Source of the DNA: Monodelphis domestica
Lineage: Eukaryota; Chordata; Mammalia; Didelphimorphia; Didelphidae
NCBI RefSeq assembly: GCF_027887165.1
Contig: NC_077229.1
Span: forward strand, 205,592,253-205,656,252
Length of the DNA stretch: 64,000 nucleotides
Reading direction: 5' to 3'
The position numbers and the translations under genes are program-made. How positions within the stretch are numbered: position 1 is the stretch's first letter; each line of letters opens with the position of its first letter. The notes under the pieces are model-generated. The model had not been told where the DNA came from and did no database searches. It saw nothing but the letters and a program-made list of their open reading frames with translations. Shown here piece after piece: positions 5,408 to 57,800 of this stretch.

Positions 5408-5504
5408 ATGAAGGCGGAGGGTGCAGATAACTCCATGATCAACCTGTCGGTGCAGCAGGTCCTGAGTCTCTGGGCCCACGGGACGGTGCTGAGGAACCTC
5501 ACGG
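5408..5504 (+). CDS. TMEM170B: TMEM170B coding exon 1
   Basis: Encodes residues 1-32 plus the first base of codon 33, ending ...VLRNLT. The donor reads G|GTAAAG at 5504/5505. The ATG at 5408 has A at -3 and A at +4. It carries the N-terminal part, presumably outside the membrane, with both glycosylation sequons. The exon lies wholly in the CpG-rich promoter region. Confidence 0.96.
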
Positions 5505-11500: not shown

Positions 11501-14500
11501 AAAACTTTATTTAAAAATGTAAAAAGCATTTTTTTAGCTTTTTGAGCCTTTACAAAAAATGGTTGAGACCATTGTTTGCCAGTCCCTGGGCCAAATTATC
11601 AGACTTTCCATTTAACTACATTTCATCATCTAGATAATATTCATTTTTCCCCCCTATCGTTTTTTCCAGTTGTCCAGAATGGCCATTTGGGAGGTGGGGA
11701 TTGTGTTAATTTAGGAAGTCAGTTCATGTGCCAGGACTTGATTCAATAAGCACAATGTCCTTTGCTGTCTAGGGAATCTTACTATTTATCTATATGCTAC
11801 ACTTCTTTAGATTATGCTTGTACATCTTTTGTGATAATGGCAAATACCTTTTGGTAAGTCTTCCTGTTTTATGCTTCACATCATATTGATAACCAGAAGA
11901 TTGTTGAACAGTTATTTCTGTGGTTGCATTTATGTCATAATGTGCTCAATGGTTATAACAGCATGTTTAAATATACTAAAGAAAAGAATGGCTTCATGAG
12001 TTTTGGCATTCTGTCAAATAGATCAGAAAGAAACCTGTGTGTAACTTAGGATATAGTCTTTGAGGGTAGCTTCAGATAAAATATATAATATTACTGATGT
12101 ACTTGAAAAATCATAATTTTAAGATCTGTTAAAGTGTAACTTAAGGAACATCAAACTGGGGACTTGCTTTAAAAACATAAGGTATCTTGTTTTACAGTAG
12201 AGGCTTTCAAAACCCTGCTCCATTCAGATCATCTACCTTGACATTCTAATCTGAAAGTTATTGTTTCAAGTAACAAGGGGAACCATGTTAAAGATGCCCA
12301 GGAGACACCTAGAGTCTTTACATAGACCAATTTTTTTAAACTAACAAATTTTAATTAGGCACAGGGGAATCTTATATTTACATTTTTTCAGTTGTGTAAC
12401 TTAAGATGTGCTCTATTTTAAAGAATAATCAGTGAAAGTATGCTTTCTTCTCATGTATTCATTAAGGGTACAGTAAATTTGTTCATAGATCATTCCATAA
12501 CAATTTTTTAAAGATGTAAGAGAAGGCTATAGGTCAATAGTTCCTGGTAGAACTAACAGGTGTGGTTGCTCAGATATTGTCAGGGATCCTTAAAAGCCAG
12601 TAGTTATTCAGTAAGCATTTACTAAGAGCCTAGTATGTACCAAGTGCTGTTTTAATCACTGGTGATAGAAAAAAAAGAAGCAAAAGACAATTCTTGCCCT
12701 CTAGGAACACAATGTAGTAAGGACCTCACAGTTTAATGAGTAAATAGTAGAGAGTAAGAAAGGTACCAAAGAATTAGAGAGCTATTTTTTTTTATAAGGG
12801 AAGAGGCTGAGTTGCTTGCTTTTGATTTCTGCTAAAATTCTAGAATATATTATTTTTTTTCAGTTGGATTTTTTAAAAATTTTAAACATTATTTTATTTG
12901 GTAATTTCCAAACATTATTCACTGGAAACAAAGATCATTTTCTTTTCCTCCCCTCCCCCCCTCCCACCACCTTTCCCTCTCCCATAGCCAACGCAAGATT
13001 CCACTGGTTATCACATGTGTTCTTGACTCGAACCCATTTCCCTGTTATTGGTATTTGCATTAGAGTGTTCATTTAGAGTCTCTCCTCAGGCATATCCCCT
13101 CAACCCCTGTAGTCAAGCAGTTGCTTTTCATCGGTGTTTTTACTCCCACAGTTTATCCTCTGCTTGTGGATAGTATTTTTTAGATCCCTGCAGATTGTTC
13201 AGGGACATTGCATTGACACTAATGGAGAAGTCCATTACCTTCGATTGTACCACAGTATATCAGTCTCTGTGTACATTGTTTTCCTGGCTCTGCTCCTTTC
13301 GCTCTGTATCACTTCCTGGAGGTTGTTCCAGTCTCCATGGAATTCCTCCACTTTATTATTCCTTTTAGCACAATAGTATTCCATCACTAACATATACCAC
13401 AATTTGTTCAGCCATTCCCCAATTGATGGGCATCCCCTCGTTTTCCAATTTTTGGCCACCACAAAGAGTGCAGCTATGAATATTCTTGAAAGTCTTTTTC
13501 CTTATTATTTCTTTGTGGTACAAACCCAACAGTGCTATAGCTGGATCAAAGGGCAGACAGTTTTATCACCCTTTGGGCATAGTTCCAAATTGCCCTCCAG
13601 AATGGCTGGATCAATTCACAACTCCACCAGCAATGAATTAGTGTCCCCACTTTGCCACATCCCCTCCAGCATTCATTACTTTCCATAGCTGTCATGTTAG
13701 CCAATCTGCTAGGTGTGAGGTGATACCTCAGAGTTGTTTTTATTTGCATCTCTCTGATTATAAGGGATGTAGAGCACTTTTTCATGTGCTTATTAATAGT
13801 TTTGATTTCTTTGGCTGAGAACTGCCTGTTCATGTCCCTTGCCCATTTATCAATTGGAGAATGGCTTGATTTTTTTGTACAATTGATTTAGTTCTTTGTA
13901 AATTTGAGTAATTAAACCTTTGTCAGAGGTTTTTATGAAGATTGTTTCCCAATTTGTTGCTACCCTTCTGATTTTGGTTACATTGGTTTTGTTTGTACAA
14001 AACCTTTTTAATTTGATGTATTCCAGATTATTTATTTTGCATTTTGTAACTCTTTCCAAGTCTTGCTTTGGTTTGAAGTTGTTCCCTTCCCAAAGGTCTG
14101 ACATGTATGCTATTCTGTGTTTGCCTAATTTTCTTATAGTTTCCTTCTTTATGTTCAAGTCATTCACCCATTTTGAATTTATCTTGGTGTAGGGTATGAG
14201 GTGTTGATCTAAACCTAATCTTTCCCACACTGTCCTCCAATTTTCCCAGCAGTTTTTATGAAATAGTGGATTTTTGTCCCAAAAGCTGGGATCTTTGGGT
14301 TTGTCATATACTGTCTTGCTGAGGTCGCTTGCCCCCCAGTCTATTCCATTGATCCTCCTTTCTGTCTCTTAGCCAGTACCAGATTGTTTTGGTGACCGCT
14401 GCTTTATAATATAGTCTGAGATCTGGGACTGCAAGGCCCCCTTCCTTTGTATTTTTTTTTTCATTATTTCCCTGGATATCCTTCATCTTTTGTTCTTCCA

Positions 14501-15160
14501 AATGAACTTTGTTATGGTTTTTTCTAAATCAGTAAAAAAAATTTTTGGAAGTTCCATGGGTATGGCACTAAATAGATAGATGAGTTTGGGTAGGATGGGC
14601 ATTTTTATTATATTGGCTCGTCCTACCCATGAGCAGTTAATGTTCTTCTAATTGTTCAAGTCTAGTTTTAGTTGTGTGGAAAGTGTTTTGTAGTTGTGTT
14701 CATATAGTTCCTGTGTTTGTCTCGGGAGATAGATTCCTAAGTATTTTATTTTGTCTAAGGTAATTTTGAATGGGATTTCTCTTTCTAGTTCTTACTGCTG
14801 AGCTGTGTTGGAATTATATAGAAATGCTGATGACTTATGTGGGTTTATTTTGTATCCTGCAACTTTGCTAAAGTTGTTGATTATTTTGATTAGCTTTTTG
14901 GTTGAATCTCTAGGATTCTTTAAGTAGACCATCATGTCATCTGCAAAGAGCGATAATTTGGTCTCCTCCTTGCCTATTTTAATGCCTTCAATTTCTTTTT
15001 CTTCTCTAATTGCTACTGCTCTCTAGAACATATTATTAAAGGAATGATCTGTTGACCTTTAGAAAGAGAAATGATGGTCACTGAATGACTCAAGAAGAGA
15101 CAATACCAGACTAGCATCATTTCCGTTTTTTTCACTGAAGGGCCATTGGATTTGTAGATA

Positions 15161-15196
<36 letters not shown>

Positions 15197-18100
15197 CATA
15201 TATATGTAATATAGTTTACTTATATTTGAATAAAGCATTTTTGACAGTCTTTTTATTGTGAACAAGATAGAAAGGAATGGCCTACATGATGGTATAGATA
15301 AGTGAATTCAGGACTTGATGAGTGGCAGGACCTAAAGAGTAATTGTTAATAGGTCTAATGTCACCTCTCTAGCAAAGTACTGCACAGGGATATCTTTGAT
15401 CCCATTTTGTTCAACAACATAGAGATTTGATTGATGGAGTAGATGGCATGCTTATCAAATTTGCTGGTGTCATAAAGCTGATATTTGTATCAGGAACTTT
15501 GAATGACATAGTTGCCATTCAAAAACATCTGGACAGTCTAGCATGCTGAACTGAAACTACCAAGATTAAATTTAATAGGGGTAAAATCAGAAATTTAAGT
15601 TTAAAAAAATCTTTCTGAATATTCCATGGAGAATCATTGCTATACAACACTCAAAAAGAATAACTTCTTACTACATTGAAAGCTTTGTTGTCTAGAATAT
15701 TAGAGGAGATAGCCCCACTGTACTGTGCTTTGGGTCAGAACACATCTGAAGTGTAGTATTTGTTAAAAGTTTGATTTTCTCTTGTAGGATATACTATTTT
15801 TTCTTGGGTAAATTATTTTTGGTCATTAAGCATTTATATTTCGTGGAATGCTGTATTCCATGTTTTTTGTGGGTGCTAAATTATGTTGATCCTTACCTGT
15901 GTTGCTTCAGTACTTGAATTCTTTCTGGCTGCTGGATATTTATTTTTTCTTTGACCTTGATTTTGGCTATAAGGGTGATAAGTTTTCATTTGGAGATTTC
16001 TATTGATGTGAAATCAATGGGTTCTTTCTCTTCCCACTTTGCTCTCTGGTTCTTGTAGGTCTGGAAAATTTTCTTTTATGGGTTTCTAATGAAATAGTTC
16101 TTCTATTTTTTCATTCTTTTGATTTTGTTTTATTGCTTCTTGATGTCTTACTTTCCACTTGCTCAGTTCCAATTTTTTTTTTAATATATTTTATTTGATC
16201 ATTTCCAAGCATTATTCGTTAAAGACATAGATCATTTTCTTTTCCTCCCCCCCACCCCCCATAGCCGACGCGTAAGTCCACTGGGCATTAGATGTTTTCT
16301 TGATTTGAACCCATTGCTTTGTTGATAGTATTTGCATTAGAGTGTTCATTTAAAGTCTATCCTCTGTCATGTCCCCTCAACCTCTGTATTCAGGCAGTTG
16401 CTTTTTCTCGGTGTTTCCACTCCCATAGTTTATCCTTTGCTTATGAATGGTGTTTTTTTTCTCCTGGATCCCTGAAAGTTGTTCAGGGACATTACACTGC
16501 CCCTAATGGAGAAGTCCATTACGTTCGATTATACCACAGTGTATTAGTCTCTGTGTACAATGTTCTCCTGGTTCTGCTCCTCTCGCTCTGCATCACTTCC
16601 TGGAGGTTGTTCCAGTCTCCATGGAACTTCTCCACTTTATTATTCCTTTGAGCACAATAGTATTCCATCACCAACATATACCACAGTTTGTTCAGCCATT
16701 CCCCAATTGATGGGCATCCCCTCGTTTTCCAGTTTTGGGCCACCACAAAGAGCGCAGCTATGAATATTTTTGTACAAGTCTTTGTGTCCATTATCTCTTT
16801 GGGGTACAGACCCAGCAGTGCTATGGCTGGGTCAAAGGGTAGATATTCTTTTGTCGCCCTTTGGGCATAGTTCCAAATTGCCCTCCAGAATGGTTGGATC
16901 AGTTCACAACTCCACCAGCAATGAATTAATGTCCCTACTTTGCCACATCCCCTCCAGCATTCATTACTTTCCTTTGCTGTTATGTTAGCCAATCTGCTAG
17001 GTGTGAGGTGATACCTCAGAGTTGTTTTGATTTGCATCTCTCTGATTATAAGAGATGTAGAACACTTCTTCATGTGCTTGTTAATAGTTTTGATTTCTTT
17101 ATCTGAGAACTGCCTATCCATTTCCCTTGCCCATTTATCAATTGGAGAATGGCTTGATTTTTTGTACAATTGATTTAGCTCATTATAAATATGAGTAATT
17201 AAACCTTTGTCAGAGGTTTCTATGAAGATTTTTTCCCAATTTGTTGTTTCCCTTCTGATTTTAGTTATATTGGTTTTGTTTGTACAAAAGCTTTTTAGTT
17301 TGATGTAGTCAAAATTATTTATTTTACATTTTGTGATTCTTTCTATCTCTTGCTTGGTTTTAAAGCCTTTCCCCTCCCAAAGGTCTGACATGTATACTAT
17401 TCTGTGTTTACCCAATTTACTTATGGTTTCCTTCTTTATGTTTAAGTCACTCACCCATTTTGAATTTATCTTGGTGTAGGGTGTGAGGTGTTGATCTATT
17501 CCTAGTCTCTCCCACACTGTCTTCCAATTTTCCCAGCAGTTTTTATCGAATAGTGGATTTTTGTCCCAAAAGCTGGGATCTTTGGGTGTATCGTATACTG
17601 TCTTGCTGAGGTCGTTTTCCCCCAGTCTATTCCACTGATCTTCCTTTCTGTTTCTTAGCCAGTACCAAATTGTTTTGATGACTGCTGCTTTGTAATATAG
17701 TTTGAGGTCTGGGACTGCAAGGCCCCCATCATATGTGTTTTTTTTCATTATTTCCCTGGATATCCTTGATCTTTTGTTCTTCCAAATGAACTTTGTTATG
17801 GTTTTTTCTAAATCAGTGAAGAAGTATTTTGGTAGTTCAATGGGTATGGCACTAAATAGATAAATAAGTTTGGGTAGGATGGTCATTTTTATTATATTGG
17901 CTCGTCCTATCCATGAGCAGTTAATGTTTTTCCAATTGTTCAAGTCTAGTTTTAGTTGTGTGGCGAGTGTTTTGTAGTTGTGTTCATATAGTTCCTGTGT
18001 TTGTCTTGGGAGATAGATTCCTAGGTATTTTATTTTGTCTAAGGTGATTTTGAATGGGATTTCTCTTTCTAGTTCTTGCTGCTGAGCTGTGTTGGAGATA

Positions 18101-21100
18101 TATAGAAAAGCTGATGATTTATGTGGGTTTATTTTGTATCCTGCAACTTTGCTAAAGTTGTTGATTATTTCAATTAGCTTTTTGGTTGAATCTCTAGGAT
18201 TCTTTAAGTAGACCATCATGTCATCCGCAAAGAGTGATAACTTGGTCTCCTCCTTGCCTATTCTGATGCCTTCAATTTCTTTATCTTCTCTAATTGCTAC
18301 TGCTAGTGTTTCTAGTACAATGTCAAATAGTAGAGGTGATAATGGGCATCCTTGTTTCACTCCTGATCTTATTGGGAATGCATCTAGTTTATCCCCATTG
18401 CAGATGATATTAGCTGTTGGTTTTAGATATATACTGTTTATTATTTTTAGGAATGACCCTTCTATTCCTATGCTTTCTAGTGTTTTTAATAGGAATGGGT
18501 GTTGTATTTTATCAAAGGCTTTTTCTGCATCTATTGAGATAATCATGTGGTTCTTGCTAGTTTGCTTGTTGATGTGGTCAATTATGTGGATGGTTTTCCT
18601 AATGTTGAACCAGCCCTGCATCCCTGGTATGAATCCTACTTGATCATGGTGAATGATCCTTCTGATCACTTGCTGGAGTCTTTTTGCTAGTATCCTATTT
18701 AAAATTTTTGCATCTATATTCATTAGGGAGATTGGTCTATAGTTTTCTTTCTCTGTTTTTGACCTGCCTGGTTTTGGAATCAGTACCATGTTTGTGTCGT
18801 AAAAGGAGTTTGGTAGAACTCCCTCTTTGCTTATTATGTCAAATAGTTTGTATAGTATTGGGGTTAACTGTTCTCTGAATGTTTGATAGAATTCACAGGT
18901 GAATCCATCAGGCCCTGGGGATTTTTTCTTAGGAAGTTCTTTGATGGCTTGATGGATTTCAATTTCTGATATGGGATTATTTAAGAATTCTATTTCCTCT
19001 TCTGTTAGTCTAGGCAGTTTGTATTTTTGTATATATTCATCCATTTCTCCTAAATTGGTGTATTTATTGCCATATAATTGGGCAAAGTAATTTCTAATGA
19101 TTGCCTTAATTTCCTCCTCATTGGAGGTGCTGTCCCCCTTTTCATCTTTAATGCTGTGAATTTGCTTTTCTTCCTTCCTTTTTTTAATTAGATTGACCAG
19201 TACTTTGTCTATTTTGTTTGTTTTTTCAAAGTACCAGCTTCTTGTCTTATTTATTAAATCAATAGTTCTATCACTTTCGATTTTATTAATTTCTCCCTTA
19301 ATTTTTAGGATTTCTAATTTGGTTTTCTGCTGGGGGTTTTTAATTTGATCGCTTTCGAGTTTTTTCAATTGCATTTCCAATTGATTGATCTCTGCTCTCC
19401 CTTGTTTGTTAATATGAGCTTTCAGGGATATGAATTTGCCTCTGATTACTGCTTTGGCTGCATCCCAAAAGGTTTGAAAGGATGTTTCGCCATTGTCATT
19501 TTCCTTGATGAAATTATTAATTGTTTCTATGATTTCTTCTTTAGCTAAACGGTTTTGGAGTATCATATTGTTTAATTTCCAATTGGTTTTAGATTTGGTT
19601 TTCCATGTACCATTACTAATCATTATTTTTATTGCCTTGTGATCTGAGAAGGCTGCATTCATTATTTCTGCTTTTTTGCATTTGTGTGCTATGTTTCTGT
19701 GACCTAATGTATGGTCAATTTTTGTGAATGTGCCATGTGGTGCTGAGAAGAAGGTGTATTCCTTTTTATCCCTATTTATTTTTCTCCATATGTCTATTAA
19801 TTCTAATTTTTCTAAGATTTCATTCACTTCTTTTACCTCTTTCTTATTTATTTTTTGATTTGATTTATCTAAATTTGATAATGGTTGGTGTAAGTCTCCC
19901 ACTAGTATGGTTTTATTGTCTATTTCTTCCTTCAATTCTCCTAGTTTCTCCATTAGAAATTTGGGTGCTATATTATTTGGTGCATACATGTTGATTAATG
20001 ATATTTCCTCATTGTCTAGAGTCCCTTTTAACAAAATATAATTACCTTCCCTATCCCTTTTGATCAGGTCTATTTTTGCATTGGCTTTATCAGATATCAT
20101 GATTACCACTCCTGCCTTCTTTCTATCAGTTGAGGCCCAGAAGGTCTTACTCCATCCTTTAATTCTGACCTTGTGGGTGTCAACCCGCCTCATGTGTGTT
20201 TCTTGAAGACAACATATGGTAGGGTTTTGGATTCTAATCCATTCTGCTATTCGTCTACGTTTTATGGGTGAGTTCATCCCATTCACGTTCAAAGTTATGA
20301 TTGTCATTTGTGGACTCCCTGGCATTTTGATTGCCTTCCCTAATTCTAACCTTTTCTTCTTCGGCTCTACCTTTTAGTCCAGTGATTTACTTTGAATCAG
20401 TCCCCCTTGTCCCCTCCCTTGATGTTTCCCTTTTTAGTCCCTCCCTTTTTGTTCCCTCCCCCTCCCCCCTCTCTTTCCCTCCCTTTTTGTTCTCCCTCTC
20501 CCCCTCCCCCCCTTGGTTTTCCCTTCTCCTTACCCTTGTTGGGTAAGATAGAATTCAAGATCCCAATGGATCTGGATGTTTTTCCCTCTCAGAGTTGATT
20601 TCCCTGAGATTGAGGTTTAAGTAAACCCCCCCCCCCTCTCTTCCTCTCCTTCTTATAGGAGTTTTCTTCCCCTCCCCTTCCCCTGTGAATCTTTGTGTGA
20701 GAACCATTATTCTATTTGGTCTTTCTTTACCCCCTATTTATACATTACATTTTCCCCACATATTAGTATACATAGGTTGATATAAATGTAGTCCTTATAG
20801 AAGAGAGTTTGAGTAAAAGAAGATAACATTTTTCCCCTTTCCTTAATATTTACCTTTTCAGGTATTCCTTGCTCTTTGATTTTCGGTATCAAACTTTCCA
20901 CAGAGCTCTGGTCTTTTCTTTGCAAAAAGTTGGAAGTCTTCTATTTTGTTGAATGCCCATACTTTCCCTTGGAAGTATATAGTCAGTTTTGCTGGGTAGC
21001 TGATTCTTGGTTGGAGACCCAGCTCTCTTGCCTTTCTGAAGATCATGTTCCATGCCTTACGATCATTCAGCGTAGAACTTGCAAGGTCTTGTGTGACCCT

Positions 21101-24100
21101 GATTGGCATTCCTTTATATCTAAATTGTCTTTTTCTGGCTTCCTGTAGGATTTTTTCTTTTGTTTGATAGCTTTGGAATTTGGCAATTACATTCCTGGGA
21201 GTTGTCTTTTGGGGGTTTAGTGTAGAAGGTGTTCTGTGAGCTCTGTCAGTGGATGTATTGCCCCCTTGTTCTAGAATCTCTGGGCAATTTTCTTTGATTA
21301 TATCTTGTATCACCATGTCCAGTTTGGTGTTTATTTCTGGCTTTTCTGGGAGTCCAATTATTCTTAAATTTTCTCTTCTCCCCCTGTTTTCCAGATCTAT
21401 CACCTTGTCGGTGAGATATTTTATGTTCTCTTCTAATTTCTTGGTGTTTTGGCTTTGCTTTATTAGTTCTTGCTTTAAAGCCTGGTTTTCTTTTACAGTT
21501 TGGTCAAACTGGTTTTGTAGATGCGTGAATTTCTTTTGCATCATTTCCCACTTTTCCTCCCAGAGGGCTTCCATCTTTTTGGTCCTTTCTGATTCAAATT
21601 CTTCATGGGTTTGTGGAGAGTTTCTATTTCCTTTGGAAGATTTTGGAGAATTTTCTTGTATATCTTCTTCTATCTGCTCTGTATTTTGTATTTTGGCTCC
21701 ATAGAATGTGTCCAGAGTCGCCCCTTTCTTCTTATTTTTCTTGGTATTTTGGGGCTTCTGTGCTTCTGTGGAGTTTGTCATCTCTGAACGTGGAGGATTG
21801 GCTTTTCTTGTCTTTGTCTGGTGATCAGAGGCTTTAGTCCTGGGCAGATGTTGGTTCTATGAGCGTTCCCTGGGTTAAACTGAATATGCCTCACTGGAAC
21901 TGGAATGGAAGGGTCTGACCACGAGGCCACACTCTCCCCCTGGCTCGATTTCCGGAAGTTGCCTTCAGAATCCCTGGCCGTGAGGCTGTTTCGTTGGCCT
22001 GCGGGGGGATGGGCTGCCGCTTCCCCAAGCTCCGAGAGCACAGACTTTCACTGAGACTTGGATAGCAGGATCCCGCCTGTGAGGCTGTCTTGCCCGCCCT
22101 GAGGGTTGCTGTTGTTTTGACCAGCTCTCTGCAGCGGAGGCCCCAGGCAGTAACTTTCACCCGGACCGACAGGCTCTTTGCAGCGGAGGCCCCAGGCAGT
22201 AACTTTCACCCGGACCTACCGGCTCTTTGACCAACCGGCTCTTTGCAGCGGAAGCCCCAGGCAGTAACTTTCACCCGGACTGGGACTTGGGTAGAAGACC
22301 CTGAGGGTTGTTGTTCCTCAGACCCTGCTCTCTGAGCCCGGCGCGGCTGCCGCTTCCGGGAGCCTTGGACTCTGCGCTCCTACCCCTGAGGTCCGAGGGA
22401 TCTCGGGTTCTGGCTTTTAAGGGGAGCCGTACCTTTTGAACCGGGTCCAGGTCCAGGAGGAGGGTTCCCAGGGTCTGTGCTGTTGATCGTTTTGAATTTC
22501 GGCGCCTTAGGAGCTTCTAGTTTGAGATCGGTCGGGAAGGGTTTTCCGGAGATCTGAACTTCAGCTTTCTCTAAGCAGCCATCTTAACCGGAAGTCTCTC
22601 AGTTCCAATTTTTAAGGAATGATTTCTTCAGTAAGCTTGTATGCCTCCTTTTCTGTTTGGCCAATGCATTTTTGAAAGTAGTTCTTAAGTGAATTTTTGT
22701 GCTTCTTTTTCCTCTTTTTGACCAATTTTACATTTTAATGAGTTCTTCTCTTCAATGAATTTATACAAATCTTTTTTCTATTTGGCCAATTCTGCTTTTT
22801 TTTTTTTTTTACTATTTGGCCAATTCTATTTTTCTTAAGATGTTATTTTCTTGAATTAATTTTTTGTGCCTCTTTACCATGCTGTTATTGACCCTTTTCC
22901 CATAATTTCCTTGCATTCGCCTCCCCTCACTTTTTCTTTTACCTTTTTTTTTATTTTAAAATTTCTTTTTGAGCTTTTTCAGGGCTTGAGATTAATTGAA
23001 ATTTTGTTGTCTTTTTAATCTGTTTTCATCTTCTTTATCACCACAATAACTTTATATGATCAGGTTCTTTTCGGTTGTTGTTTGCTCATTTTTCTAACTT
23101 AATTCTTCACTTTTTACTTTATGTTAAAGTTGTGTTCTTCTCCTAGGGTAGTGGGATTACCATCCCATGCTTCAGGTTTTTTGTGCTGCTGTTTTCAAAG
23201 CTAATTCTGGGAGTCCGTACAGTTTTCAGTTCTTCCAACATAGTGTGATCCAAGAAGGGGTGTGATTACTGCTCTCCTGGCCTATACTGTGGTCTGTGAG
23301 TGATCACAAGGACTCTTTTCCTCCCTTAAACTGTTAACAGGATCCTGGCTCCTGTTAGTGCTCCTCCTTGCTCTAGTATTGTGACCTAGAACCACATAAT
23401 GGGCAATGAAACAGAGCACTACTCCTGGTGTCAGTAAAGGGTTCTCTATAATCTCTTGACCAGTTTTCAGATCCTTTTACTATTGGTAGGATGAGAGCTC
23501 TGGAAGACATAGCATCTGTCTATTTATTCTCTTTTACATTCTGCTTCTGGCTTGCTCATGCTTGGTTTGTGCTAGACTGTGTTCCTACTCCAATGAAATA
23601 GACCTTTCCCAACTTGTCTTGGGCTGGAAAATTGTTCTACCCTATCGTTTTTTGTTGTTGTTGTTGTTGTTTTTTTTGGTTCTGCAGTTTTAGAATTCAT
23701 TTCTTGGAATTATTTTAATGTTGTTTGAAGGGGAATTTGGGAGAACTCAGTCAAGTACCTCTTTACCATTTTGACTACAACCTTATTTAATTATATCTTA
23801 AAAGAAGAGAGGGACTATGTTAATTAGAAGTTAGGAAGGAATCTATTCTAGCCACGGGGAGAGCCAGTACTATAGCACAGAGTAAGGAAATGGAATGCCA
23901 TGTGTGAGAAGGCCATTATAAGCTAGATTAAAAACGAGGAACAGTGTTCACTGAAGCTAGAAAGATAGTTTGAAATTTGGTTGTACAGGATTTTAAAAGA
24001 TAAATAAAAAAGTTTGTTTTATCCAAGAGGCAATAAGAAGCCACAGAATTTGATTAAATAGAGGACTCACATGATCTGAGTTTAAGGAAAATTACTTTGG

Positions 24101-42100: not shown

Positions 42101-45100
42101 TATAGAATTAGTAAATATAGATGCAGATGGTAATAATAACTGACATTTATATACATATCACTTTAAAGTGTGAAAACATTTTACTTATATTCTTGGTATT
42201 TTTTAATTCATTTTGTATCTTGCAACTTTGTTCAAGAAACTTGTCTTATATCAGTCATTCAACAAAATTAACAGTGCTTTGATTTTCTTTTCAGAGATGT
42301 GGTACTGGATTTTTCTGTGGGCTCTCTTCTCTTCTCTCTTTGTCCATGGTGCTGCAGGAGTATTGATGTTTGTCATGCTACAGAGACACCGGCAGGGAAG
42401 AGTCATCTCTGTCATTGTGGTCAGCATAGGATTTCTGGCTTCCATAACAGGAGCAATGATAACCAGTAAGTTGGTTTGTTTAAAAATATAATTTAGCATA
42501 ATTTTTCAAAAATTTTATAATATTATAATCAAACATAATGACTTTCTAAGAGGTACTGTCTTTTACATATAATTTATTTTTTAGCTCTGGAGCAGGGTTG
42601 TTGACATCCCAATAAACTTGAACCTGGAGTAAATGGGAACATTGAGGTGGGGCTACAGCTATATATCTAATTTGTTCTTCCCCCAAATCAAAGATATTTA
42701 AGCCTCAAATATGAAGTTTGAAGGGAACTCAGTAAATAATTATATCTGGGAAAAATATTAGAACTAGAAATCAAGAATCTGTACCATATATAATTGTATA
42801 TTTCAGAATTAATAACTTATCTGTGTGAAAGAAGTAAGTGCATATAGAATTCTTCCAACTTTTGTCTTAAAGATAAAGTGATGGAGTTAATTGGAGGGAG
42901 ATGTTAGCTTGGTGAATTGTTGTTAGCTGCATGAACTGCTGGGCAAGTCAATTAACCTCAACTGTCTAGTCCTTACCACTCTTCTGCCTTAAAAATGACA
43001 CTTAGTATTGATTCTAAGACAGAAGGTATTGTTTTTTAAAGACCATTTTTCATGTCATTTGTTAAATTCAAATATTTATTGAATGTCATTTCTAATTAAC
43101 AGGGATACAAAAATGATAAACGACACAGTTCCCACCCTAAAGTAATTGAAGGAATTACAGTGTTAGAATGTGATAAGTAGTAAAAGATTATTGAAATGTA
43201 CTGCAATAGTTGAAAACAATGAAGTTTCCATCTCCTACTGAAGGCAATCAAGAAAAATCTCATTAATTTGAGATGCTCCTTGAAGGATGGGTTAGTATTC
43301 TGTAAGTGGAAATGGAGAAATAATGCCACATTAGGCAAGGGAAATAGCATCAGCATTTCCTTAAAAGGAGGAAAACATATTTGGGAATGATGGAGTTAGA
43401 CCAGTATATGGTATTTTTCAGCATAGAGAGAATAGTTGGTTTGGTAGGATTTTTATTGTTTATTTAGTTTTATTGTTTTATTGTTCTTGAGTATCACATT
43501 GAGGAATTTAGACTTAATCGAAAAGAGAATGAAAAATAATGTTTTAACTTATGTAATACTAGACTTTCCTTAATTTAGTTATCTGAATTCACCTCAGAAT
43601 TATGAGTTCCCTTAAAGTCACTTGTTTAAAGCTTCATTGAGGTCTTAAAACATGCTGAACTTGTTGATTTTTATTGCATTATTTTTGAGCTTGTATTAAT
43701 GCTTAAACTGCTTCTAGACAGTGAGACACCTTTAATAAACAAATCTTTGGAAAAGTGAATGCAGCTATTTTCCTGTAAACGAACTCCATCTTATTTTTGT
43801 CTTGAAGAGGATGGAAAATGATTGCCAGTTACTCTAAGGTCTTTGTTGTTGTTTTTTAACTTTATATATTGTTTTCAGACTTCAGTTTTAGTTGAATATG
43901 ATACTGAATATGAACTTAATACAGTAACCTTTCTTTACATGTGCAACTTGGCGAAGTTAAATGGTTTGTCTAAGGGTATAGGCTTAATTGATGGCAGAGT
44001 TAGGGCTAGTAACAATCTAGATCCTTTGAATCTTAATTCACTGTACCAATATAATACTTCATGATTCTGAAGCTCTTTCTATACATTACTTCAATGTGTC
44101 TTACAATTCTTTGTGAGGATTAGAATCTCTTTTGTCAATGAGCAAACTTAGGATCAGAGGAATTAATTTGATGAAAGGTCATAATATGGATCAAGTAAGT
44201 CACAAAGCAGGTATTTGAACAAAGACCTGCCTGACTCAAAATCCAGTGTTCTTACTCTGACAGTAATGTGGTTGATAAAATCATTATTGTAGTTAACCAG
44301 GTTGTCTATGTGAATTATCTACTTTTTAAAGAAATATATGATAACATAATTCCTAAACTTTCTCATATGAGGTCAAAGTGTAGCAGGTCCATTTAATTAA
44401 AAAGGCTTCTAATAAAGATCTGGCAGCAAATTGTCATTAATTCTACCACTTTTCTTCCCCCAAAGTTCCCCACCCAAGGAACAGTTAATGTTCAGAGGGG
44501 CTAATTGTCAGAATCTTGGCCACCAGATACATTTTCTATTTTTGGTCATAAAAATTCTTGAAGACTTTCTTCTAAGGCATTGAGTTTTGCTACATCAGTA
44601 GATTTACCCAAGTCAGTTAAATAATAGGTTCTTTTAAAGTACATAAATTTTAAAACCATTTGAACATTGTGATAATTTAGTATTCAGTTTTAGAGTTTTA
44701 TTTGTAATGACAATCCAAAAGGCAACTGCATCAGCCCTCATTTAAGAAGATAGGTAGTTTAGTTTAAAAAACACTAGACTGGGAATCCGAAGATCTGGGC
44801 TCAGATTCTGGTGGCAACTTTGCAGTTATGCAGTCATAGGCATATTAATTAAATTCATTAGGCCTGAGTTATAACAGAGTATCACTAGCTTGTCTCCAGT
44901 CCTTTTCTTTTTAAAATCTGTGGAATGTCATTTGTAAAACATAGATCTTGAAGTTTAATAGAAAAAATGTTTTTGAAACTTGTAGTTTAAACATTTGTAG
45001 AAGAGTTAATAAGGCCTTTTACCAATTTTTAAAATTAGAAACTAATGAATAACAAGATTAAATTATAATTGGACATCCAGATCACCATTATTTAATAAAC

Positions 45101-45267
45101 GAATGTATCATTTTGCTTCTCTCCTTTCTCCTTTAGGTGCAGCAGTAGCTGGCATTTACAGAGTAGCAGGGAAAAACATGGCTCCCTTGGAAGCATTGGT
45201 GTTAGGGGTTGGACAGACTGTACTGACATTAATCATCTCCTTTTCAAGGATCCTTGCAACACTTTGA
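5408..45267 (+). CDS. TMEM170B: TMEM170B, transmembrane protein 170B (three coding exons)
   Basis: Joining 5408-5504, 42295-42465 and 45137-45267 gives a 132-residue protein, the length I recall for human TMEM170B and nearly identical to it. Both introns are GT-AG, and the split codons give Glu33 (G|AG) and Ser90 (A|GT). Three hydrophobic segments are visible, at about residues 34-61, 70-97 and 107-130. They are linked by a basic loop (QRHRQGR) and a short [11 protein letters not shown] loop. Two N-glycosylation sequons (N12-L-S, N30-L-T) lie before the first segment. The family consists of multi-pass membrane proteins. TMEM170A has been linked to ER and nuclear-envelope shape, and TMEM170B to restraint of Wnt/beta-catenin signalling; that is literature knowledge, not visible here. 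The paralogue TMEM170A was considered and rejected because the N terminus (MKAEG...SMINLSVQQ) is the TMEM170B type. The start is set by conservation and an A at -3. No break is seen. Confidence 0.97.
5662..5679 (+). repeat. Poly-G run of 18 in intron 1
   Basis: Eighteen consecutive G 157 bases after the exon 1 donor. It is able to form a G-quadruplex and is prone to sequencing and length error. Confidence 0.9.
5930..6140 (-). repeat. MIR-type SINE
   Basis: 'TATAGCGCTCTAAGGTTTA' start, 'AGATGAAGATACTGAGGCC' core and 'GGATTTGAACTCTGGTC' B-box side, in reverse order. Confidence 0.75.
6141..8270. other. Intron 1 sequence, mostly unassigned
   Basis: AT-rich intron DNA. The part at about 7110-7500 has a TTTATT near one end and a richer segment with a short CAG run (7406-7426). 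It could be an old LTR on the - strand, but I cannot support that firmly. The rest is unremarkable. Confidence 0.4.
8275..8475 (-). repeat. MIR-type SINE
   Basis: 'TTAGAGCTGGAAAGGCCCTC', 'TTTTACACATGAACTGAAA', 'AAGTGACTTGCCGAGGGAC' and 'GGTTTGATTCCAGC' in reverse MIR order. Confidence 0.75.
8757..8780 (+). repeat. (TA)n microsatellite
   Basis: A short run of alternating AT of about 24 bases. Confidence 0.85.
8885..9085 (-). repeat. MIR-type SINE
   Basis: 'TTTATGGGGCACTTTACTTG', 'ACACAAGAGGAAATTGAGG' and 'TTTAAACTTGGGTCTATC' in reverse MIR order, diverged. Confidence 0.65.
9090..10505. other. Intron 1 sequence, largely unassigned
   Basis: AT-rich. A short piece near 9415-9500 ('AAGTATTTATTAAGTGCTTACAG' region) resembles the end of a CR1/L3-type or related old repeat. 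Nothing else recognised. Confidence 0.4.
10510..10770 (+). repeat. MIR-type SINE
   Basis: Head with 'AGACTGCTGAACCTGGAGTA', core 'CACTAGCTGTATGACCCTGG', tail 'TCAGTTTCCTCATTTGTAAA' and 'TTTGTAAAGCACTTTGAAAA'. An AT-rich insert splits the core near 10595-10630. Confidence 0.75.
10771..12590. other. Intron 1 sequence, nothing recognised
   Basis: AT-rich intron DNA with only short chance frames. No repeat family could be named. Confidence 0.4.
12595..12800 (+). repeat. Old CR1/L3-like or CORE-type repeat tail
   Basis: 'TCAGTAAGCATTTACTAAGAG', 'TACCAAGTGCTGTTTTAATC' and 'TCTTGCCCTCTAGGAAC' match a widespread old therian repeat end. A similar piece is at 27755-27900. The family name is uncertain. 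Confidence 0.45.
12855..15022 (-). mobile_element. 5'-truncated L1, sister of the full-length copy
   Basis: A collinear match to the 3' third of the L1 at 16178-22597, covering the 3'UTR (with its C-rich tract on the + strand near 12945-12965) and the ORF2 C-terminal half. It stops where the intact copy reads near 18304. The flanking 15-base duplications differ at one place (CTAGAATATATTATT at 12840-12854, CTAGAACATATTATT at 15023-15037), so it is an ordinary 5'-truncated target-primed insertion. The ORF2 frame is broken into several pieces (about 13235-13462, 13546-13833, 13850-14230, 14304-14501), including a run of extra C near 14330. The copy is dead and older than its neighbour. Confidence 0.93.
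15158..15206 (+). repeat. (TG)n(TA)n microsatellite
   Basis: About 12 TG units followed by TA-rich units. Confidence 0.85.
15255..15745 (+). mobile_element. CR1/L3-clade LINE fragment
   Basis: Reading forward, 'AATTTGCTGGTGTCATAAAG' corresponds to the conserved DDTKLG region of CR1-type reverse transcriptases. It is followed by the LDDR..IQKDLD-like stretch (about 15500-15540) and the SALVRPHLEY-like stretch (about 15715-15760). It is heavily decayed with no open frame. Confidence 0.6.
15760..16161 (-). mobile_element. Older L1 (ORF1 side), part split off by the young L1
   Basis: Antisense L1/HAL1-like ORF1 region; 'GGATATTTATTTTTTCTTTG' and 'TAGGTCTGGAAAATTTTC' are familiar old-L1 ORF1 segments in reverse. 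It continues at 22614 on the other side of the young L1. Confidence 0.55.
16162..16177 (+). repeat. Target-site duplication, left copy
   Basis: CTCAGTTCCAATTTTT, repeated at 22598-22613. It brackets the full-length L1. The last Ts merge with the tail. Confidence 0.9.
16178..16518 (-). other. L1 3'UTR with G-rich polypurine tract
   Basis: Runs from the ORF2 stop to the A tail. On the sense strand a GGGGGGTGGGGGGGAGG tract (complement at 16245-16261) resembles the conserved G-rich tract of mammalian L1 3'UTRs. Confidence 0.85.
16519..20325 (-). CDS. L1 ORF2p: endonuclease and reverse transcriptase
   Basis: A 1268-residue open frame, close to human L1 ORF2p in length and start ([16 protein letters not shown]). 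The N-terminal APE-like endonuclease nicks target DNA: N13, E42 (CLQETHM), Y114, D144, the [12 protein letters not shown] stretch and SDH are present. The residue aligned with catalytic Asn147 of human L1 is His146 (GDLHQPLS; codon at 19888-19890), preceded by Leu rather than Phe. The Z region ([18 protein letters not shown]) and RT motifs follow: [22 protein letters not shown] and FADD at residues 699-702. The C-terminal Cys motif is C1123-X3-C1127-X7-H1135-X4-C1140. The protein reverse-transcribes L1 RNA at the nicked site. No stop or frameshift is seen; the stop is TAA at 16519-16521. The His146 change could impair nicking. Confidence 0.97.
20326..20857 (-). other. Long purine-rich spacer between L1 ORF1 and ORF2
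   Basis: About 530 bases with no conserved frame. On the element's sense strand it is rich in G and A (GGGAGGGGG blocks; C/T-rich on the + strand near 20395-20660). Human L1 has a spacer of only about 60 bases. How ORF2 is translated across such a gap is unclear. Confidence 0.9.
20858..21781 (-). CDS. L1 ORF1p: RNA-binding chaperone
   Basis: A 307-residue open frame. A basic, polar N terminus (residues 1-60) precedes a predicted coiled coil (about 66-132, for trimer formation). Then comes an RRM-like domain (about 136-215, starting [13 protein letters not shown], with the DRAHRTP stretch at 179-185) and a C-terminal domain (about 216-290). The C-terminal domain carries [10 protein letters not shown], also found in human ORF1p. 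The protein coats L1 RNA in the ribonucleoprotein particle and acts as a nucleic-acid chaperone. The frame is unbroken and ends with TGA at 20858-20860. The start ATG is at 21779-21781, matching the length of therian ORF1p. Confidence 0.96.
   Translation of the reverse strand: MTNSTEAQKPQNTKKNKKKGATLDTFYGAKIQNTEQIEEDIQENSPKSSKGNRNSPQTHEEFESERTKKMEALWEEKWEMMQKKFTHLQNQFDQTVKENQALKQELIKQSQNTKKLEENIKYLTDKVIDLENRGRRENLRIIGLPEKPEINTKLDMVIQDIIKENCPEILEQGGNTSTDRAHRTPSTLNPQKTTPRNVIAKFQSYQTKEKILQEARKRQFRYKGMPIRVTQDLASSTLNDRKAWNMIFRKARELGLQPRISYPAKLTIYFQGKVWAFNKIEDFQLFAKKRPELCGKFDTENQRARNT
21782..22597 (-). promoter_or_regulatory. L1 5'UTR / internal promoter
   Basis: GC- and CpG-richer than its surroundings, and the expected internal RNA polymerase II promoter of the element. 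The 5' tip on the - strand contains AAGATGGC (complement at 22578-22585), about 13 bases from the element start, a YY1-type site placed like that of human L1. Tandem units fill the middle. Confidence 0.8.
22124..22283 (-). repeat. Three tandem units in the L1 5'UTR
   Basis: Three copies of a unit with GCAGCGGAGGCCCCAGGCAG followed by TAACTTTCACCCGGAC start at 22124, 22173 and 22238 (+ strand reading). Spacings are 49 and 65 bases; the second unit carries an extra CCGGCTCTTTGACCAA-like piece. A looser outer duplication links about 22030-22120 with about 22265-22350. Confidence 0.9.
22598..22613 (+). repeat. Target-site duplication, right copy
   Basis: CTCAGTTCCAATTTTT, identical to 16162-16177. 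Confidence 0.9.
22614..23790 (-). mobile_element. Older L1, ORF1 start and 5'UTR
   Basis: Continuation of the split element at 15760. It contains the reverse of an old marsupial L1 ORF1 N-terminal half (to about 23095), then a 5'UTR ('TGATTACTGCTCTCCTGGCC' at about 23264). It ends near 23790 with the complement of a CAAAATGG start. No open frame survives. Confidence 0.6.
23800..26190 (-). mobile_element. L2-clade LINE remnant, copy A
   Basis: On the - strand, frames near 24329-24695 read like the L2 reverse transcriptase: [23 protein letters not shown] (the YADD motif region) and then [13 protein letters not shown]. The order of further familiar L2 segments to about 25400 is collinear; the limit beyond that is approximate. 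An imperfect TA/CA microsatellite sits near 24513-24545. Decayed. Confidence 0.75.
26200..27310 (-). mobile_element. L2-clade LINE remnant, copy B (3' part)
   Basis: The same orientation and family as copy A, covering the more 3' region. Complement of 'CCTGACCATGTCATTTACC' near 26740 and the segment around 26800-26900 match the L2 3' coding region. It overlaps copy A in content near 27000-27260, so it is a second insertion and not a continuation. Confidence 0.75.
27179..27226 (+). repeat. (TATC)n microsatellite
   Basis: About 11 TATC units with two interruptions, inside L2 copy B. Confidence 0.9.
27755..27900 (+). repeat. Old CR1/L3-like or CORE-type repeat tail
   Basis: 'CAATAAATATTTAGTAAGGG' then 'GTCAGGAACTATTCTAAGTA'. 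The same old family as near 12595; name uncertain. Confidence 0.4.
27901..28130. other. Intron 1 sequence, nothing recognised
   Basis: A locally G-rich stretch of mixed sequence without a nameable family. Confidence 0.4.
28135..28385 (-). repeat. MAR1-type marsupial SINE
   Basis: 'GGCAAAGATACTAGAATGG', 'TTTGCCATTTTC', 'GATGAGGAAAATGAGGCAAA', then 'GGCTGGATTTAAACACAGG'. The same family is at 33700 and 54520. Confidence 0.75.
28390..29885. other. Intron 1 sequence, nothing recognised
   Basis: AT-rich, with no repeat family I can name and only short chance frames. Confidence 0.45.
29890..30560 (-). mobile_element. Possible solo LTR of an endogenous retrovirus (fossil)
   Basis: A sharply richer block in AT-rich intron. 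On the - strand a TATA-like TCTATATAGGG (complement near 30212-30222) is followed about 300 bases later by an ATTAAA signal (complement near 29910). That order fits an LTR. Ends and target duplication were not resolved and no internal genes are attached. Confidence 0.4.
30830..31430 (+). mobile_element. Old L1, 3' end of ORF2 and 3'UTR
   Basis: 'TGGTGGCAAAGAATGGGAAA', 'ATGCCCATCATTTAG' and 'GATGGAATACTATTGTGCT' are the diverged forms of the ORF2 C-terminal segment also seen in the young L1. Decayed. Confidence 0.75.
31431..32100. other. Intron 1 sequence with an (ATT)n tract
   Basis: Unassigned DNA. 31879-31917 is an imperfect ATT/AAT microsatellite. Confidence 0.6.
32105..32308 (-). repeat. 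Marsupial SINE1/WSINE-type element
   Basis: T-rich tail side at 32105, 'CCCTTACCTTCCGTCTTGGA', 'GTGACTTGCCCAGGGTGACA' and a tRNA-like head ending 'CCCAGTTGCCCC'. Flanks share an imperfect GACCACTTTA/GACCACTATA duplication. Confidence 0.9.
32525..32650 (-). repeat. MIR-type SINE fragment
   Basis: 'GGTCATCTAGATCAACTCCC', then 'GACTTGCCCAAAATCACAC'. Confidence 0.65.
32651..33475. other. Intron 1 sequence, unassigned
   Basis: AT-rich DNA with repeat-like texture, but no family I can support. Confidence 0.35.
33480..34070 (-). mobile_element. Old L1 ORF2 fragment, split by a SINE
   Basis: 'CTGGGTCAAAGGGCATAG', 'CTCATAGTT' and the following text match the antisense ORF2 C-terminal region, as in the young L1 near 16830-17060. 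A MAR1-type SINE interrupts it at about 33700-33952. Confidence 0.65.
33700..33952 (-). repeat. MAR1-type marsupial SINE inside old L1
   Basis: 'GTTGTGTCTAATTCCTCATG', 'GCAAAGATACTAGAGTG', 'GTCACACAGCTAGC' and 'CTCTATCCTCTGGGTCACC'. Confidence 0.8.
34075..34212 (+). mobile_element. L2 3' end
   Basis: 'CTCCTTGAGAACAAGGACTG', then 'CCCAGGGCTTAGCACATGG' and 'AAATAAATGCTTGTTGA', the typical L2 3' terminus. Confidence 0.75.
34255..34690 (+). mobile_element. L2 remnant (ORF C-terminus and 3' region)
   Basis: 'CTTTTCTCCTGCTGTCCTCC', 'ATGCTTGGAATGTACTCTT' and 'CTATACAAGACTTTTCCTGA' match the L2 coding end in sense orientation. Confidence 0.7.
34700..35650 (+). mobile_element. Old L1 ORF2 fragment (RT region)
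   Basis: 'TATCACTTACAGATGATATT' reads LSLTDDI, the decayed FADD motif, followed by MVYLEN. Further on, 'GTCAGACCTCAAACTATAAA' matches the downstream V(R)PD/QTIKL stretch. Sense strand, many breaks. Confidence 0.7.
35651..36210. other. Intron 1 sequence, nothing recognised
   Basis: No family named. A G run (GGGGGGGAGGGG) lies near 35839-35850. Confidence 0.4.
36215..36420 (-). repeat. MIR-type SINE
   Basis: 'AGAAGAGGAGACTGAGGCC', 'TGACTTGCTAATGGG' and 'GAACTAGAGCCCAAGTCTTC'. Confidence 0.7.
36600..36800 (-). repeat. MIR-type SINE
   Basis: 'TTATCCCCATTTTGAAAATG', 'AGGAAACTGAAGCAAAC', 'TTTGAATTCAGGTCTTCCTG'. Confidence 0.75.
36835..36960 (+). mobile_element. Old L1 ORF2 scrap
   Basis: 'AGTAAGAGAAATGCAAATTA' followed by AAACAATTCT matches the sense ORF2 stretch before the Cys motif. 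Confidence 0.5.
36961..37705. other. Intron 1 sequence, nothing recognised
   Basis: AT-rich, no family named. Confidence 0.4.
37710..38110 (-). repeat. MIR-type SINE split by a SINE1
   Basis: 'CTATAGTGCTTTACAATTTG' at the left, and 'TTACAGATGAAGAAAGAGG' with 'CAGGTCTTCAGACTCC' at the right, in reverse MIR order. The gap at about 37760-37955 holds a SINE1. Confidence 0.7.
37760..37955 (-). repeat. Marsupial SINE1/WSINE-type element inside MIR
   Basis: 'CTCTTACCTTCTATCTTACT' side, 'CACCCAGGGTCACACAGCTA' and head 'CTACCTAGCTGCCCTCC'. Flanks share GAGTACTT / AAGTACTT. Confidence 0.85.
38111..38715. other. Intron 1 sequence, nothing recognised
   Basis: AT-rich with poly-T runs; no family named. 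Confidence 0.4.
38720..39285 (-). mobile_element. Old L1 ORF2 fragment with a SINE1 insert
   Basis: Antisense ORF2 C-terminal text before and after the SINE at 38958-39171. It appears to resume after an LTR-like block at about 40190 ('ATGCCAATTTGCTTTCTGAA'). Confidence 0.55.
38958..39171 (-). repeat. Marsupial SINE1/WSINE-type element with target duplication
   Basis: Full set of family segments ('CCCTTACCTTCCATCTTGGA', 'GACTTGCCCAGGGTCACACA', head 'CATCCAGCTGCCC'). CTCTAGTTTCTT occurs on both sides (38946-38957 and 39172-39183). Confidence 0.93.
39286..40188 (+). mobile_element. Possible solo LTR (fossil) inserted in old L1
   Basis: Starts TGTGATAGAG. A TATAAA-bearing segment near 39890 is followed by an AATAAAG near 39952, the order of a TATA box and poly(A) signal in an LTR. 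The element interrupts the antisense L1 text on both sides. A 30-base segment near 39286 recurs near 39431. Exact 3' end and target duplication were not resolved. Confidence 0.45.
40189..40440 (-). mobile_element. Old L1 ORF2 fragment, continuation
   Basis: 'CATAATGCCAATTTGCTTTC', 'ACCAAAGAGTTGTTTTTAA' and 'TTTGTATGATTTTCATTATT' follow the order of the young L1 near 16865-17040, diverged. Confidence 0.6.
40480..41265. other. Unassigned block, perhaps partly LTR-derived
   Basis: Repeat-like texture at about 40490-40990, beginning 'TGAAATGAGGCAGGCACTC'. I could not establish ends, signals or family. Confidence 0.3.
41270..42235 (-). mobile_element. Old L1 ORF2 fragment close to exon 2
   Basis: Antisense ORF2: 'TTGGTGCATAATATAGGATG' region, then 'TTTGTATCTTGCAACTTTGT' near 42213 (compare 'TTTGTATCCTGCAACTTTGC' in the young L1). 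A MIR scrap interrupts near 42120-42190. It ends about 60 bases before the exon 2 acceptor. Confidence 0.7.
42295..42465 (+). CDS. TMEM170B: TMEM170B coding exon 2
   Basis: A 171-base exon (phase 1 to phase 1) encoding the end of codon 33 to the first base of codon 90. It covers the first hydrophobic segment ([18 protein letters not shown]), the basic loop and most of the second segment. The acceptor is TTTTCTTTTCAG and the donor is A|GTAAGT, a strong consensus. Old L1-derived sequence ends about 60 bases upstream of the acceptor. Confidence 0.97.
42895..43030 (+). repeat. Marsupial SINE1/WSINE-type fragment
   Basis: 'GCTGGGCAAGTCAATTAACC', 'CTTACCACTCTTCTGCCTTA', then 'TTGATTCTAAGACAGAAGG'. 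The head is decayed. Confidence 0.7.
44075..44260 (-). repeat. MIR-type SINE
   Basis: 'CTTACAATTCTTTGTGAGGA', 'GGTATTTGAACAAAGACCTG' and 'AAATCCAGTGTTCTTACTC'. Confidence 0.65.
44740..44850 (+). repeat. MIR-type SINE fragment
   Basis: 'AACACTAGACTGGGAATCCG', then 'GGGCTCAGATTCTGG', the tRNA-like head of MIR. Confidence 0.55.
45137..45267 (+). CDS. TMEM170B: TMEM170B coding exon 3 with stop
   Basis: The acceptor CTCCTTTAG precedes GT GCA GCA. The exon finishes codon 90 (Ser) and encodes residues 91-132, ending FSRILATL, then TGA at 45265-45267. The end of the second hydrophobic segment, the connecting loop and the third segment lie here. Confidence 0.97.
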
Positions 45268-57294: not shown

Positions 57295-57505
57295 ATTATC
57301 TATTGATTACAGAAATGGATATTAGAACAACTCTGAGGTGCTATTTCACACTTTCAAATTAGCTAATGTGATAGAAAAGGAAAATAACAAATGCTAGAGA
57401 GATGGAAAAGTAAGGGCACATACACTGTTGGTGGAATTGTGAACTGGTCCAACCATTCTATAGAATAATTTGGAACTATGCCTGAAGGATTTCAAATTGT
57501 GGATC
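57295..57505 (+). mobile_element. Old L1 ORF2 scrap, sense
   Basis: 'AACAACTCTGAGGTGCTATT' and 'GTTGGTGGAATTGTGAACTG' match the ORF2 Cys-motif region in sense. Confidence 0.75.
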
Positions 57506-57509
57506 TCTT

Positions 57510-57800
57510 TTGACTCAATAATACATTAGTGTCCCAATTTTGTGACATTCCCTCAACATTTATAATTTTCCTTTACTGTCATATTGGTCAATCTGATATG
57601 ATAGGTATGAGATGATACCTCAGAATTATTTTAATGTGCATTTCTCTAGTCAAGAGTGATTTAGAATATTTTTTCATATGATTATTGATAACTTTTATTT
57701 CTTCATTTGAGAATTGCTTGTTCATATACTCTTACCATTTGTCAATTGAGAAATGACATATTCTTATGAATTTGGCTAAGTTCTCTATCTAGAGCCTAAG
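57510..57800 (-). mobile_element. Old L1 ORF2 scrap, antisense
   Basis: 'ATTAGTGTCCCAATTTTGTG', 'TATGAGATGATACCTCAGAA' and 'TTTGAGAATTGCTTGTTCAT' follow the antisense order seen in the young L1 near 16925-17120. Confidence 0.75.

What the first reader, a model, noticed from the sequence alone, without database searches (positions are those of the whole stretch)
16162..22613. Full-length L1 with both ORFs open and perfect target-site duplication, antisense in TMEM170B intron 1
The 5' tip, ORF1, ORF2, A tail and a 16-base perfect duplication are all present without an obvious break. Such copies are rare and are the source elements for new insertions. The position inside a host gene also makes it a candidate for effects on TMEM170B transcription.
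Basis: partly seen in the sequence, partly recalled or inferred. Interest (0 to 1): 0.75.

Follow-up and report, generated by a model that had tools for sequence, protein, structure and literature searches.

The report
Young opossum jumping gene, endonuclease hit
A complete and young copy of the LINE-1 jumping gene lies backwards in the first intron of the opossum gene TMEM170B; it is one of many similar copies, and a change in the active site of its DNA-cutting enzyme probably cripples it as a source of new copies.

Summary
Observation confirmed: between two perfect 16-base target-site copies (16162-16177, 22598-22613) lies a 6420-base minus-strand LINE-1 with 5' UTR, open ORF1 (307 aa), open ORF2 (1268 aa), AATAAA and a short A tail. 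It is antisense in intron 1 of TMEM170B, in Monodelphis domestica (protein hits).

It is young: 7 of 6387 compared bases are found only in this copy, and 39 other places in the genome match its last kilobase at 99-100% (a lower bound).

'No break, hence a source element' is only partly supported. ORF2 residue 146, human Asn147 of the endonuclease active site, is His. Asn stands there in 141 of 150 protein relatives (none has His) and in 14 of 14 genome copies with that codon. The insertion itself has a canonical TTTTT/AA site and perfect duplication, so a working endonuclease made it; the change probably arose during or after insertion.

Prediction: normal ORF1 protein and reverse transcriptase, impaired endonuclease, poor autonomous mobility. 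Intact copies are not rare here: 4 of 12 near-full-length relatives have both frames open. Ordinary, with one useful natural endonuclease variant. Polymorphism, expression and enzyme activity are untested.

The parts
16162..16177 (.). target-site duplication, copy next to the 3' end of the L1
   Evidence: exact 16-mer, two places in the window only
22598..22613 (.). target-site duplication, copy next to the 5' end of the L1
16178..22597 (-). LINE-1 element, 6420 bases between the duplications
21782..22597 (-). 5' UTR, 816 bases, 57.6% G+C, CpG observed/expected 0.56 (whole window 0.17)
22578..22585 (-). AAGATGGC at base 13 of the element (YY1-type motif; the name is recalled)
22124..22229 (.). 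49-base tandem repeat, 2.2 copies, inside the 5' UTR
20858..21781 (-). ORF1, 307 aa, RRM-like and dsRBD-like domains
20326..20857 (-). 532-base purine-rich spacer between ORF1 and ORF2, with two G-quadruplex-like runs
   Evidence: 528-532 bases in 14 of 14 genome copies spanning it
16519..20325 (-). ORF2, 1268 aa, endonuclease and reverse transcriptase
19888..19890 (-). codon of ORF2 residue 146 (human Asn147), here His
16178..16518 (-). 3' UTR and short A tail, 341 bases
16190..16195 (-). AATAAA polyadenylation signal
5408..5504 (+). TMEM170B coding exon 1
42295..42465 (+). TMEM170B exon 2
45137..45267 (+). TMEM170B coding part of exon 3 with stop

Best explanation
This is a young, full-length copy of the currently or recently amplifying L1 lineage of Monodelphis domestica. 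It was inserted by ordinary target-primed reverse transcription at TTTTT/AA in intron 1 of TMEM170B, antisense to the gene (shown: anatomy, duplication, target site, near-identical copies). During or soon after insertion its ORF2 endonuclease lost the active-site Asn (now His) (shown: the residue is private to this copy among those examined; inferred: the timing). Asn147 in the human enzyme touches the scissile phosphate and, with Asp145, holds the water thought to attack it, so the copy should nick DNA poorly and be a poor autonomous source (inferred). It may still make ORF1 protein and a working reverse transcriptase (inferred from intact conserved positions).
For: Anatomy and target site. 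Domains and human homologues. Residue 146: Asn in 141 of 150 protein relatives with a residue there, His in none (9 others have K, W, Y, F or S; one more has a gap, 25 more do not reach it). It is the only one of 76 columns conserved at 90% or more over 192 relatives at which this copy departs. Asn in 10 of 10 opossum representatives with a residue there, of 12 chosen. The codon is AAC in 14 of 14 genome copies that have it, of 20 fetched; one has it deleted and five are truncated before it. Youth: 7 of 6387 bases are window-only (3 in the 5' UTR, 4 in ORF2 of which 3 change the protein), and divergence from 12 near-full-length copies is 0.27-0.62%. Asn147 contacts: passages of PMC8565326; APE1 Asn212 in the same role: passages of PMC12557600.
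Against: No measurement of an Asn-to-His enzyme was found: the held papers gave one listing for 'N147' with LINE-1, endonuclease and catalytic and none for 'N147A' with endonuclease and retrotransposition. The human endonuclease tolerates several mutations, even S228A near the catalytic His (PMC4837594, passages). His can also form hydrogen bonds. Among relatives of 40% identity or more (125), the copy departs at 14 of 359 conserved columns, though at the other 13 its residue is shared by 1 to 5 relatives. The A tail is short, which fits a very recent insertion less well.
Confidence: 0.78

Rival explanations
1. Fully competent source element: His at position 146 is tolerated and the copy retrotransposes in cis.
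For: Both frames open, no other departure among the 76 most conserved ORF2 columns and none among 99 in ORF1; the endonuclease tolerates some mutations (PMC4837594, passages).
Against: No protein relative examined has His there, and 0 of 14 genome copies with the codon share it, so no offspring of this copy was seen in that small sample. Asn147 contacts phosphate and attacking water (PMC8565326, passages).
Confidence: 0.12
2. A one-base sequencing or assembly error: the real copy has Asn and is a normal intact L1.
For: A single private base; only one assembly seen. The copy has just 7 window-only bases, so one error would matter.
Against: The gene and both long frames read cleanly, as expected of good sequence; no positive sign of error.
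Confidence: 0.06
3. A sublineage of opossum L1 carries His here and still moves, by an altered or endonuclease-independent route.
For: Not excluded: only 20 of 39 near-identical copies were fetched, and members inside protein clusters cannot be seen.
Against: 0 of 14 genome copies and 0 of 10 opossum proteins have it; this insertion has the marks of an endonuclease-made one: canonical site and perfect duplication.
Confidence: 0.04

Closest known systems
Young L1 lineage of Monodelphis domestica
   Same: ORF1 99.3% identical over 307 aa to P0121, ORF2 99.0% over 914 aa to P0002 and 97.5% over 1224 aa to P0001; 0.27-0.62% DNA divergence from 12 near-full-length copies; same 528-532 base spacer.
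   Different: Private His at ORF2 residue 146, and 6 further window-only bases.
Human LINE-1 (L1HS; ORF2p 8uw3, endonuclease 1vyb and 7n8s)
   Same: Colinear ORF2p, E = 0 over residues 5-1257, and ORF1p C-terminal half; target TTTTT/AA (abstract in listing).
   Different: About half identical in ORF2; spacer 532 bases, against a 63-base inter-ORF in the human-based constructs of PMC3091869 (passage); catalytic Asn replaced.
Tasmanian devil L1
   Same: Marsupial L1 with 75% ORF2 identity to P0011.
   Different: PMC4476161 (passages) cites loss of L1 activity in the devil but activity in M. domestica; the papers it cites were not held.

Membership tests
LINE-1 (L1) retrotransposon | ORF1 with L1 RRM-like and C-terminal dsRBD-like domains | tested here: met
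   PF02994 and PF17490 above cut-off; human ORF1p structures
LINE-1 (L1) retrotransposon | ORF2 with APE-like endonuclease, reverse transcriptase and cysteine-rich end | tested here: met
   Pfam hits, colinear human ORF2p, FADD at 699 and CWRGCG..HCWW at 1123-1138 (the naming of the last motif is recalled)
LINE-1 (L1) retrotransposon | Target-site duplication and TTTT/AA-type insertion site | tested here: met
   16-base perfect duplication, empty site TTTTT/AAGG
LINE-1 (L1) retrotransposon | 3' end with polyadenylation signal and A tail | tested here: met
   AATAAA 12 bases before the end; tail of 5 A, short
Retrotransposition-competent source L1 | Complete endonuclease active site | tested here: not met
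   Nine of ten positions examined carry the usual residue; residue 146 is His instead of Asn
Retrotransposition-competent source L1 | Both frames open without truncation | tested here: met
Retrotransposition-competent source L1 | Active promoter and transcription in the germline | not testable with these tools
   no RNA data; only CpG-rich 5' UTR and AAGATGGC seen
Retrotransposition-competent source L1 | Offspring insertions sharing its private bases | tested here: inconclusive
   0 of 14 copies with the codon share the His codon; the genome-wide pattern search did not complete

The most novel reading that the evidence does not exclude
His at this position keeps the endonuclease partly active, perhaps with altered site choice, so that this copy, or an unseen sublineage with it, is a natural mobile L1 with a non-canonical active site.
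Probability: 0.05. Interest if true: 0.5.

Novelty: new member of a known kind. Interest (0 to 1): 0.25.

Why it matters
Frame integrity alone overstates how many L1 copies can move; this copy shows how a single active-site change hides in an otherwise intact element. It is a natural near-single-change variant of an opossum endonuclease, young enough to be compared with its relatives. As an insertion in a host gene it is a candidate for presence/absence variation among opossums. The 528-532 base purine-rich spacer shared by 14 of 14 copies is much longer than the 63 bases of human-based constructs (PMC3091869) and makes ORF2 translation in this lineage a fair question.

Tried and rejected
Assembly-wide codon count: two 31-base pattern searches of the own genome did not complete (with the first base of the codon left open; exact). 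IMG/VR scan for relatives of ORF2: 6 stretches matched a pattern, none encodes a relative. Papers not held: 10.1093/gbe/evw243, 10.1101/gr.6070707, PMC4408412, PMC1899126.

Rejected: chance duplication (the 16-mer occurs only at the two element ends). Rejected: damaged ORF1 as the cause of the long spacer (nearest ORF1 hit has the same 307 aa, and the spacer is 528-532 in 14 of 14 copies). Rejected: direct premature polyadenylation of TMEM170B by AATAAA inside the element: 0 AATAAA and 2 ATTAAA on the gene's strand; other effects remain open. The protein-level list of 13 ORF2 sites differing from every covering young representative was superseded by the DNA comparison (3 window-only protein changes in ORF2), because beyond residue 914 only one representative covered it. 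Structure prediction was not run: it would not resolve one side chain's activity.

Full report
Observation. The element lies between two exact copies of a 16-base target site (16162-16177 and 22598-22613), which occurs nowhere else in the 64 kb on either strand. On the minus strand it has 816 bases of 5' UTR, ORF1 of 924 bases (307 aa), a 532-base spacer, ORF2 of 3807 bases (1268 aa) and 341 bases of 3' UTR with AATAAA at 6403 and 5 A before the duplication. ORF1 and ORF2 match the L1 domains of Pfam and the solved human LINE-1 proteins. The joined flanks read TTTTT/AAGG at the insertion point, which fits the L1 endonuclease consensus TTTTT/AA (abstract of PMC8565326 in a listing).

Host and locus. 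The nearest proteins are from Monodelphis domestica: P0002, 99.0% over 914 aa; P0001, 97.5% over 1224 aa; P0121, 99.3% over 307 aa. The own genome has 3,586,138,614 bases in 13 contigs. TMEM170B was located with a human protein typed from recall; its exons join to an open 399-nt frame with GT..AG introns. The element lies antisense in intron 1.

Copy number and age. The last kilobase matches 39 other places at 99-100%, from 40 scored of 363 candidates, so a lower bound. Twelve of the 20 are near-full-length. They differ from this copy by 0.27-0.62% substitutions outside the first 432 bases, and 4 of 12 have both frames open, 5 ORF1 only, 1 ORF2 only, 2 neither. The 20 were chosen by similarity, so this is no genome-wide rate. 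Bases found only in this copy number 7 of 6387 positions covered by at least 8 copies: 3 in the 5' UTR and 4 in ORF2, of which 3 change the protein. In the like-for-like count the window copy has 7 of 5988 private bases and the twelve others 5 to 25. With a neutral rate of about 2e-9 per site and year (recalled, mammalian, not measured here), 0.11% suggests an age of roughly half a million years. The short A tail does not help a very recent date.

The endonuclease. Residue 146 of ORF2 aligns with human Asn147 and is His (CAC at 19888-19890 on the minus strand). Of 192 relatives compared, 176 cover at least one of ten active-site positions; 150 have a residue at 146, and 141 of these have Asn, none His; the nine exceptions are K (4), W (2), Y, F and S, and one more has a gap. 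Ten of ten opossum representatives with a residue there, of 12 chosen, have Asn. Over all 192 relatives 76 ORF2 columns are conserved at 90% or more, and this copy departs at that one only; over the 125 relatives of at least 40% identity it departs at 14 of 359, but at the other 13 its residue is shared by 1 to 5 relatives. ORF1 departs at none of 99. In the genome copies the codon is AAC in 14 of 14 that have it; one lacks it and five are truncated.

Meaning. In the human enzyme the Asn147 side chain lies 2.9 A from the scissile phosphate and, with Asp145, holds a water; Asp145 is proposed to activate the attacking water (PMC8565326, passages). APE1 Asn212 plays the like part (PMC12557600, passages), and PMC3670995 (passage) lists N147 among putative catalytic residues. 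I found no assay of the His variant. Against my reading, PMC4837594 (passages) reports that the domain tolerates several mutations. Because the insertion itself bears the marks of endonuclease-made insertion, and L1 proteins act mainly on their own RNA (recalled), the parent very likely had a working enzyme and the change came during or after insertion. The copy is thus best described as an intact-looking L1 with a probably impaired endonuclease, which may still supply ORF1 protein and reverse transcriptase.

Known background. PMC4476161 (passages) states that L1 seems active in M. domestica, citing work I could not read, and lost in the Tasmanian devil. A young, open L1 in the opossum is therefore expected. 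The long spacer (528-532 bases in 14 of 14 copies) against 63 bases in human-based constructs (PMC3091869, passage) is a feature of the lineage and not of this copy; I did not search the literature for it beyond.

Effect on TMEM170B. Not testable here. The gene's strand carries no AATAAA and 2 ATTAAA within the element. A 5' UTR antisense promoter would point towards exon 2 (inference from human L1, recalled).

Verdict.

Noticed in passing
window 12880-15020: A second, 5'-truncated L1 of about 2.1 kb in the same orientation in the same intron, 88.9% identical to the last part of the full-length copy.
   Followed up: partly
window 20326-20857: Purine-rich (71%) 532-base spacer between ORF1 and ORF2 with two G-quadruplex-like runs; 528-532 bases in 14 of 14 genome copies spanning it. 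How ORF2 is translated across it is open.
   Followed up: partly
window 22124-22280 and 5' UTR of fetched copies: 49-base tandem repeat in the 5' UTR; several genome copies align with a break near base 364-432, which suggests that the number of repeat units varies between copies.
   Followed up: no
window 15762-16161 and 22614-23013: The insertion target looks like an older, decayed repeat with repeated TTTGGCCAATTCT-like motifs and many stops in all frames; the family was not identified.
   Followed up: no
window 57311-57752 and 30794-31026: Old L1 pieces at 69-74% identity; at 57.3-57.75 kb two neighbouring pieces lie in opposite orientations, as in an inverted L1 insertion.
   Followed up: no
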